Of a stretch of DNA of 64,000 nucleotides, positions 26,101 through 29,100 are shown piece after piece (the first letter of the stretch is position 1; every line of letters begins with the position of its first letter). Position numbers and translations under genes: made by a program. Source of the stretch: Brachyhypopomus gauderio (Eukaryota; Chordata; Actinopteri; Gymnotiformes; Hypopomidae). The notes beneath the pieces are model-generated. The model saw only the letters and a list, made by a program, of their open reading frames with translations. It searched no databases and was not told where the DNA came from. Location of the stretch: assembly GCF_052324685.1 (NCBI RefSeq), contig NC_135221.1, forward strand, positions 6,389,875 to 6,453,874. The letters are read 5' to 3'.

Positions 26101-29100
26101 AACCAATTTGATAGCAATGTATCACAGATCAAATCACAGAATAATATATAAAGATCATGTTTGTTTGTATTTGGACAGAATCTTTTTTCAATAACAAATG
26201 TATTGCACTGTAAGACCTGGCGGCTTGTAACTCGCGCAAACACGCTCACTCACGTTTAGGATCAATTGTAAGTTCTCCCCAAGGGGGAGCTGTTAGCACT
26301 GGAATAAATTTAGTACTTAATATCAATGACACTGTGTCCTTGTGCCATGATTTACTTCAGGAACATTTACATCATGACAATACATTTTCACAGATGTTTT
26401 TTTTCCCAACTTTTAGAAGCTATTATATTACAGTGTGTTTTAGTTAATGATGTGTGTTTCCCTCGTCATGTAGCAGAGGGCAAAAACGCTCATAACTACT
26501 GAAAAGGAAAGAACTGGCTACTGGAAGAATCCTAGTTACTTTTCTACACGTTTTGCTTAGATAATATTGGATGTCCAGACCTTTGTTCTAGAAACAGACG
26601 TACGTAGTTAACATAGTTTACATTGCCTAGAGACTTGTTAAGTGCATGGTCCCTAAAGCGGTAAACAAAGGTTTCAGTTTACACACCTGTTTTTAGGAAA
26701 GTGCCGCACGACAGAGTTGTTTTGTGCCCTAGACGCACCTCAAAGCTAAATTAAAACTTTGCCATACATCCCTTTTGGCAACTGTGGAAAGTATTTTTCA
26801 TATGTCCCCAAAATAAACGGAAGGATACAGGTGTGTGTTCTCGAGACACTTTATTGGCTGTCGGCCGGCTGGTTGGATGTGTGAACAGTTGGTTTTGACG
26901 TAGTAGTGGTATGTAGAAGGTGGAGGGGTCGCTGATGCTCCACCCTGTCTGCAGCTCCCCACAACTCCACTTCCTCTATTACAGAGCTGACTTGACTTGA
27001 TCATTTGGTGTTCAAGTGCTCTGGTGACTCTGCAGGTCTCAGACCCTTCAGATCTCCAGTGTTGCCCAATTCCAACACAAGATTGACTCCTGCACTTGAC
27101 GTGACTTACATAGTGTACCTAGTTTATGTATGACTTCCTTATCTCTTTCATCATTTTACCCTTTGGAATTGTTCTTTTGGTCTCTAAAGGATGTAGCCAT
27201 TGACAAATTAATGCGCTGGTGTGTGTGCATGCATGCGTGTGTTCGTGTGTGTATGTGTGTGTGTGTAATTGTACAGACAAACGCAAAACACATCATGATG
27301 CTTTTCCCGCTGGAAAGAAGGGGTTGAGTGATTCTATCAGAACTAAAGTCCTCCCCGTTAAGGGGTTGAGGATAAGCGGTATGTGGATGCCAGGCAGATC
27401 TTCGGGTGATGAGTAGGTTATATAAAGGCAGCCTGACAGGTGCTGGAGTGTTTGAGCACTGCAGTGCGGGGGTGTGTGCAAGACGTCCCGCCCCCACTGT
27501 TTACTGGAAGAGGCTGGGGGAGGGGCCTCGTCTGGGGCGGCGTTCCCATTGGCCTGTAGTGCTGCTGGTGCGGGCTGCGTCACTAAGCTCCGTATTTGAG
27601 CGAGGGTCCGTCTCGTTTGCTGCAGCACTCCTCAGCCAAGCACGGCGCACACGCAGACGGGACCCTGCAGGATGAGAGCCGGCAGCTCGTGCTTACTCCT
27701 CAACCTGCTCATACAGGCGCCAGCCCCGCACAGCGTCCCGCACAGCGCCCCGTCAGGATAACCCGCCTGCCCGTCCACCGACGCCACGGAAGCGGCTCGC
27801 CCGCGTAAACCCAGCCGCCCGAAATGGCTTGCGAGGTGCTCCTGCACAGGTACCGTGTGTGAGGGAGGCCAGAGGCGTCTGTGTGGAGAGCTGGGTAGAA
27901 GGTGTGCTGTGTTACTTGCTGCTGGGAATGTTGAAGGAAGGCGCTTCATTGATTTGCTGTGCTCTCTGCAGTAGAATGGTTGATCATATCTTCATCACTC
28001 TGGATCTGTTTGTCGGGGCTTACAGGTAGCATAGCTTTGACCCAGTGGCATTCCAGGCCCTGTGTCTGACGTGCATGTTTCTGTGTGTGCATGTCGTCAG
28101 AAAGGGTTGATAATTGCCTCCGATTTGGGCAGTGAGAGAGCAGTGAAGAATGTGAGAAATTGCGACCTGCAAAGTTGCTGAATCATAACAAGCGTCTGCT
28201 TCTCACTGCCCTGTAGCACACACACACGCACAAACACAAATATTCTATGCTTGGCAGTGTGTGCTCAGTTAATAGGCTGAAAGTGCAGAGTCAGAGGAGG
28301 TGTGGTTCCTGGTCCTCAAGTGTTCCGCTCTCATGATGAAACAGCAGCAAATCTAGAAGACAGAAAAGTACATGGTGATCCTTCAGGTTCAGCCCTGTAG
28401 AAGAGAGGAGTGTGATTGGTCGTATCCATCAATGATACGTGTACCTTAGCAGAATGTTTCACTTCAGGGTTGACACTGCTTCAGTTGTTTCCCCGTCAAA
28501 ACCCCTCTGAGTAACTTCTCCATTGAAGCAGTTAAACGTAGGAGAAGTTGTGTTTGTGTAGAAGTGTATTTGTCACCTCGGTGGGTCAGTGGGCTAGCTG
28601 TTTGTTTCCAGCCAGAGAAGACGATTGGGGGCCATTTCTGTAGCAGCACTGAAACGTTTTTATTAGAGCTGTTACTCCAAGGATGAATCGGTTTAGTTTA
28701 GAGTCCTCAACAGTCTAACTATAAACATGTCTGAGTCAGATGCTGAGATGTGTCATTGCTGATGTTGCTGGACATGTATTCTGTGTGAGCTCAGCCGAAT
28801 CCATCCTCTCCCTCCCACTCCTGAACTCCTGTATGTGTCCAATAAACACATTGTAAAAGATGCGATGAAAATTCACGGCACGTGTAAATAAAACGATTCT
28901 TCTTATCATTTCATCTTTATTATCAGATGAAACATACACAACAGTTGGTCAATCATATCAAGCTCCAACTAGCCGTTCACTGACCTCAGATTGTTCTGCT
29001 GTCTGTAAGTCGGTCACTGAAGGTTTCTTCAGCTTCCTCTTGGTGGACATGGATTCATTTTTGTTCGTTTCACTAAACTCCTTTTATCATGTACATTCTT

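What the first reader, a model, noticed from the sequence alone, without database searches (positions are those of the whole stretch)
27419..27849. Internal fam13b promoter for a short isoform that starts MACE and lacks the RhoGAP domain
A TATA box, a reversed CCAAT box and a GC-rich leader precede an ATG that encodes MACEVLLH and ends in a splice donor with exactly the phase needed for coding exon 6. The human paralogue FAM13A, as I recall, has a short isoform that also begins MACE. If so, the two-promoter design predates the FAM13A/FAM13B split and separates a GAP-bearing form from a GAP-less form.
Basis: partly seen in the sequence, partly recalled or inferred. Interest (0 to 1): 0.72.

Follow-up and report, generated by a model that had tools for sequence, protein, structure and literature searches.

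The report
Internal start exon in fish fam13b
A fish fam13b gene carries a second, internal start that would make a shorter protein without its Rho-GAP domain, apparently the same device known from the human sister gene FAM13A, although in this gene the omitted domain already looks catalytically dead.

Summary
Intron 5 of fam13b contains an isolated GC/CpG-rich block (27419-27849) ending in ATG GCT TGC GAG GTG CTC CTG CAC AG|gtaccg. Its phase (2) equals that of exon 5; joined to exons 6 and 7 it reads [35 protein letters not shown]. MACE is far beyond chance here: a MACE start followed 6-24 nt later by AGGTR occurs 6 times in the 796-Mb genome; one is this exon, the only one in phase 2. TATA and CCAAT are individually unremarkable, and the CCAAT lies downstream of the TATA-implied start.

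(2) The Fam13b RhoGAP domain lacks the arginine finger, as one review states for human FAM13B, so the forms probably differ by a pseudo-GAP module. (3) fam13a in this same genome shows no MACE exon, so origin before the FAM13A/FAM13B split needs a loss here and rests on a recalled mammalian sequence. The donor is weak and no RNA or other vertebrate DNA could be examined. Most likely a genuine alternative first exon.

The parts
27419..27426 (+). TATA box TATATAAA
   Evidence: one of 25 TATAWAAR in the window (both strands), weak alone
27488..27494 (-). GC box GGGGCGG
27534..27540 (+). GC box GGGGCGG
27548..27552 (-). reversed CCAAT box, about 100 nt downstream of the TATA-implied start
   Evidence: 100 CCAAT in the window (both strands)
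27419..27849 (+). GC/CpG-rich block: putative internal promoter and alternative first exon
   Evidence: GC 0.65, CpG o/e 0.79; the only such peak among exon-free fam13b intron windows
27672..27761 (+). 29-codon upstream ORF in the putative leader
27824..27849 (+). coding part of the MACE exon (MACEVLLH plus AG), phase 2, weak donor gtaccg
17117..17267 (+). coding exon 1 of the long form (MRKS...)
   Evidence: boundary by eye
18284..18496 (+). coding exon 2, with GPFLVNG at the arginine-finger stretch
18928..19105 (+). coding exon 3 (RhoGAP domain)
   Evidence: boundary by eye
19220..19367 (+). coding exon 4 (end of the RhoGAP region)
   Evidence: boundary by eye
23130..23245 (+). coding exon 5 of the long form, ends in phase 2
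30454..30495 (+). coding exon 6, 42 nt, first exon shared by both forms
31737..31836 (+). first 100 nt of coding exon 7 as used in the joins ([12 protein letters not shown]...); its 3' end was not fixed
39259..39384 (+). last coding exon, shared C-terminus

Best explanation
The block at 27419-27849 is an internal promoter plus alternative first exon of fam13b. Transcription starts inside the CpG-rich block (TATA-directed near 27450, CCAAT/GC-box-directed further down, or both). The exon carries a leader with one upstream ORF and then 26 coding nucleotides ([10 protein letters not shown]) that splice to exon 6 at 30454. The product begins [30 protein letters not shown] and keeps the FAM13 C-terminal part but lacks exons 1-5 with the RhoGAP domain. 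The exon is probably homologous to the MACE first exon of mammalian FAM13A short isoforms (about 0.7 given that it is a real exon), hence older than the FAM13A/FAM13B duplication, and lost or unrecognisable in this fish's fam13a. Because the Fam13b RhoGAP domain lacks the arginine finger, the choice of form probably adds or removes a binding or scaffolding module, not GAP catalysis. Shown: anatomy, phase, rarity, CpG peak, missing finger, absence of MACE in fam13a. Inferred: transcription, splicing, homology, function. The confidence is for the alternative first exon itself.
For: Joined frames and shared phase 2. 6 MACE...AGGTR hits in 796 Mb, this one the only phase-2 one. CpG peak unique among exon-free fam13b intron windows. 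Good ATG context and a stop at 27860 if unspliced. Exon 6 is 42 nt with the same phases and CTCCCA start in fam13a and fam13b, so the intron before it is equivalent. Distinct promoters or start sites give long and short human FAM13A (PMC11376246; PMC13336431; PMC8836216; passages). Nine frames overlapping the block gave no Pfam match above cut-off (best E 0.067) and Rfam gave 0 hits over the window.
Against: No RNA, CAGE or other vertebrate DNA could be examined. The donor is weak (0.42, below 12 of 12 fam13b donors compared). fam13a of this genome has no MACE exon. The mammalian MACE sequence is recalled and was found in no paper. The TATA and the downstream CCAAT do not make one canonical promoter. 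Another phase-2 ATG-to-donor candidate lies at 27976-28025. Whether the block is repeated elsewhere in the genome is unknown: that search did not complete (8 tries).
Confidence: 0.8

Rival explanations
1. A real alternative first exon of fam13b, but not homologous to the FAM13A one: the MACE likeness is convergent or accidental and the internal start arose independently in the two genes.
For: fam13a of this genome has no MACE exon in the equivalent intron. Beyond MACE the start peptides differ (VLLH here; IMPLQ in human FAM13A, recalled). fam13c uses yet another GAP-less start, MFCFCLQ.
Against: Four specified residues plus a phase-2 donor in the equivalent intron, with 2.3e-5 expected for such a string with any phase.
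Confidence: 0.08
2. The block is an intragenic CpG-rich enhancer or other regulatory island, and the MACE string with its donor is not used as an exon (chance, or a decayed relic of one).
For: Weak donor; TATA and CCAAT not in canonical arrangement; no RNA evidence.
Against: Rarity of the MACE-plus-donor string; open reading into exons 6-7; strong ATG context.
Confidence: 0.09
3. The block is a first exon, but it serves mainly to produce an RNA with little MACE protein: the upstream ORF holds ribosomes back, or an alternative donor at 27858 is used.
For: 29-codon upstream ORF; donor at 27858 in the same phase ([12 protein letters not shown]...).
Against: The 62 nt between the upstream stop and the MACE ATG, and the good ATG context, allow reinitiation or leaky scanning (inference); the donor at 27858 scores lower (-0.26).
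Confidence: 0.03

Closest known systems
FAM13A long and short isoforms from two start sites (human)
   Same: Internal TSS in intron 7 of the long isoform (PMC8836216, passages), RhoGAP domain left out, MACE start (recalled), junction to the exon whose fish fam13a counterpart has the same 42 nt and phases
   Different: Here in fam13b of a fish. The Fam13b RhoGAP domain lacks the arginine finger, whereas the FAM13A N-terminal domain showed GAP activity toward RhoA (PMC11376246, passages). This fish's own fam13a shows no MACE exon.
fam13c of the same genome (C3)
   Same: FAM13 member whose first coding exon (MFCFCLQ...) lies in a CpG-rich block and has no RhoGAP part
   Different: No same-strand RhoGAP match in the 48.7 kb upstream (one weak reverse-strand match, E 0.22); different start peptide
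Intragenic alternative promoters in general (for example DCLK1 and zebrafish titin, seen in search listings only)
   Same: Internal first exon gives an N-terminally shortened protein
   Different: Unrelated genes

Membership tests
FAM13B orthologue | Closer to FAM13B than to the other FAM13 members | tested here: met
   Last exon 85% identical to recalled human FAM13B against 79% to FAM13A; C15 fits FAM13A and C3 FAM13C best. FAM13C was not compared with the window. Klhl3-like and hnrnpa0-like neighbours (named by eye) agree with the human order as recalled.
FAM13A-type two-start gene | Internal start exon directly ahead of the SSQEDERP-equivalent exon, in matching phase | tested here: met
FAM13A-type two-start gene | Predicted short product lacks the RhoGAP domain | tested here: met
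   PF00620 match at residues 37-182 lies in exons 1-4, upstream of the MACE exon
FAM13A-type two-start gene | MACE start homologous to mammalian FAM13A | tested here: inconclusive
   Rarity argues for it; the mammalian sequence is recalled; fam13a of this genome lacks it
FAM13A-type two-start gene | Transcripts starting at the internal site | not testable with these tools
   No RNA data held
Catalytically active RhoGAP | Arginine finger (p50RhoGAP Arg282) and partner Lys319 | tested here: not met
   GPFLVNG aligns with GIFRRSA, and R with the lysine of ILKTFLRELPEP; fam13a keeps GLFRVSG and the lysine

The most novel reading that the evidence does not exclude
The common ancestor of FAM13A and FAM13B already made a GAP-less MACE form from an internal promoter. 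FAM13B kept that form while its long form became a pseudo-GAP, FAM13A kept the active GAP, and single lineages then dropped one start or the other: this fish's fam13a the short one, mouse and rat Fam13a the long one (the latter published). That would be reciprocal isoform loss among paralogues, with the short form as the family's conserved core.
Probability: 0.5. Interest if true: 0.55.

Novelty: new member of a known kind. Interest (0 to 1): 0.42.

Why it matters
FAM13A is a COPD and waist-hip-ratio risk gene whose long and short isoforms are now studied as separate products (abstracts and passages), and FAM13B occurs in atrial-fibrillation genetics papers (listing). A shared, ancient internal start would mean that FAM13B variants and knock-outs also have to be read isoform by isoform, and that the short form, not Rho-GAP catalysis, may be the conserved core of the family. 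The missing arginine finger makes this testable in FAM13B, whose long form should not act as a normal GAP.

Tried and rejected
Looked for a MACE exon in fam13a of the same genome (C15, 64-kb stretch holding its first to last coding exon, + strand): no MACE codon string; in the stretch between GAP exons and exon 6 a strict start-plus-donor scan gave none, a relaxed one 14 candidates, none beginning MACE, and three relaxed start patterns one hit each, the nearest MACGKKP without a donor in frame. A marginally CpG-rich spot at C15 stretch 34701-35100 held no credible start exon by eye. Considered that the GC-rich block belongs to another protein or RNA gene: nine frames, best Pfam E 0.067 below cut-off; Rfam 0 hits over the window. 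Considered fam13c's MFCFCLQ start as a homologue of MACE: too little likeness to claim.

Print: four peptide strings gave 0 papers. For an internal FAM13B start I saw only listings: 4 of 4 papers listed; 20 of 49; 20 of 42; 15 of 835; 12 of 836, none of the 12 mentioning FAM13B. No listed title or abstract opening described one; the library is open-licence PubMed Central only, and gene-annotation databases were not available, so it may already be annotated. Papers beyond listings were seen as passages only; none was read whole. Not resolved: fam13b exons between about 31.8 and 34.9 kb, the length of the short protein, and the promoter of the long form (16.8-17.4 kb is CpG-rich).

Full report
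What is there. A fam13b gene runs on the + strand from an ATG at 17117 to a stop at 39382-39384. Exons 1-4 encode a RhoGAP domain (PF00620, E 6.9e-31, residues 37-182 of the typed 281-aa product). Exon 5 is 23130-23245 and exon 6 is 30454-30495. Between them, at 27824, is ATGGCTTGCGAGGTGCTCCTGCACAG|gtaccg. Exon 5 and this segment both end in phase 2. Joined to exons 6 and 7 they read ...[29 protein letters not shown]... and [30 protein letters not shown]....

Is it more than chance? ATGGCNTGYGARNT (MACE plus a hydrophobic residue) occurs 260 times on both strands of the genome, against 144 for the pattern read backwards, so 0.0012 are expected on the + strand of the 7.2-kb intron. Requiring AGGTR 6-24 nt later leaves 6 hits, backward control 3. 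One is this exon; of the six it alone ends in phase 2 (two are phase 0, three phase 1, one of these three with an internal stop). From the other five, 2.3e-5 are expected on the + strand of intron 5. Two side checks on the recall: the recalled human short protein is 697 aa, as is the cow FAM13A product in PMC6947481 (passages), and its other parts align exon by exon to this fish's fam13a.

The promoter. The 431 bases have GC 0.65 and CpG o/e 0.79. Among 1512 exon-free windows of that size in fam13b introns 11 have as many CpGs and all 11 are this block; over the whole window it is 143 of 6357, so the block is unusual for an intron, not for the window. TATATAAA, CCAAT and two GGGGCGG boxes are present. 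One TATAWAAR (0.17 expected) and one CCAAT (0.67) mean little singly, two GGGGCGG (0.09) a little more. The CCAAT lies about 100 nt downstream of the start that the TATA box implies, so either there are two starts or one box is idle. The leader carries a 29-codon upstream ORF ending 62 nt before the MACE ATG. The donor scores 0.42 with a recalled matrix, below the 12 fam13b donors compared (0.66-7.96, each taken as the best GT near its exon end), and ranks 39th of 544 GTs in the intron; a second donor 9 nt on keeps the phase but scores -0.26. A weak donor could mean regulated use or be a warning. A further phase-2 ATG-to-donor candidate lies at 27976-28025.

Relatives in the same genome. A C-terminal query found four places: fam13b itself, C15 (78%), C3 (61%) and a weak one on C17 (E 0.044). 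C15 is fam13a: its exon 6 encodes SSQEDERPISPFYV, has 42 nt, runs phase 2 to phase 2 and begins CTCCCA like fam13b's, so the intron before it is equivalent. No MACE codon string occurs on the + strand of the 64-kb C15 stretch, and relaxed starts and donors before exon 6 gave nothing convincing. C3 is fam13c: a CpG-rich block with MFCFCLQGSLLKL and no same-strand RhoGAP match in the 48.7 kb upstream. So in this one genome fam13b has the long form plus a candidate short start, fam13a the long form only as far as seen, and fam13c a GAP-less form only as far as seen.

The GAP domain. Aligned with p50RhoGAP, the arginine-finger stretch GIFRRSA is matched by GPFLVNG in Fam13b, and the lysine 37 residues on (ILKTFLRELPEP) by R; in two structure entries of the same alignment the finger position is A (GIFARSA), which I recall as finger mutants. 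This fish's Fam13a keeps GLFRVSG and the lysine. PMC8305018 (passages) names Arg282 and Lys319 as the defining pair and lists human FAM13B among proteins that lack the finger and are inactive. Against this, PMC8412110 (passages) carries FAM13B in a table of RhoGAP alterations, apparently among the 25 it counts as active on Cdc42. On the sequence, the two forms of Fam13b would differ by a pseudo-GAP module.

What is known. Human FAM13A has two start sites and the short isoform lacks RhoGAP (PMC13336431; PMC11376246; passages). TSS 1 lies in intron 7 of the long isoform (PMC8836216, passages). [quoted passage not shown] For FAM13B I saw no paper describing an internal start in the listings, which show only part of the matching papers; annotation databases were not available.

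Conclusion. A real alternative first exon is the best explanation (0.8). It extends a published FAM13A design to FAM13B. Origin before the duplication is likely but needs other vertebrates, and its absence from this fish's fam13a stands against simple conservation in both genes.

Noticed in passing
window 18284-18496: The Fam13b RhoGAP domain has L in place of the catalytic arginine (GPFLVNG) and R at the partner lysine; fam13a of the same genome keeps both residues.
   Followed up: yes
L004 (G000:C17:19419842-19419952, - strand): Weak extra match to the FAM13 C-terminal module (RNPQREDWVTMAMEYERYKALKARLRQLTYM) with a second exon-like match nearby; possibly a distant further family member.
   Followed up: no
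window about 46.6-53.7 kb (-), 58962-59870 (-), 63.6 kb (+): Neighbours named by eye from translations: a kelch gene resembling klhl3, an intronless hnrnpa0-like ORF of 302 aa, and a PHD-finger (dpf-like) exon. The order agrees with human FAM13B-KLHL3-HNRNPA0 as recalled.
   Followed up: partly
window 51164-51748: Repetitive stretch open in all three + frames ([18 protein letters not shown] and the like), a minisatellite-like array.
   Followed up: no
window 27672-27761: 29-codon upstream ORF ([29 protein letters not shown]) in the putative leader, overlapping a short 12-bp tandem repeat at 27723-27752.
   Followed up: partly
L016 about 9147-9650: Tandem G-rich repeat (GGGGGGCTGAGGCGTGTTT...) about 250 bases past the likely first coding exon of fam13c.
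   Followed up: no
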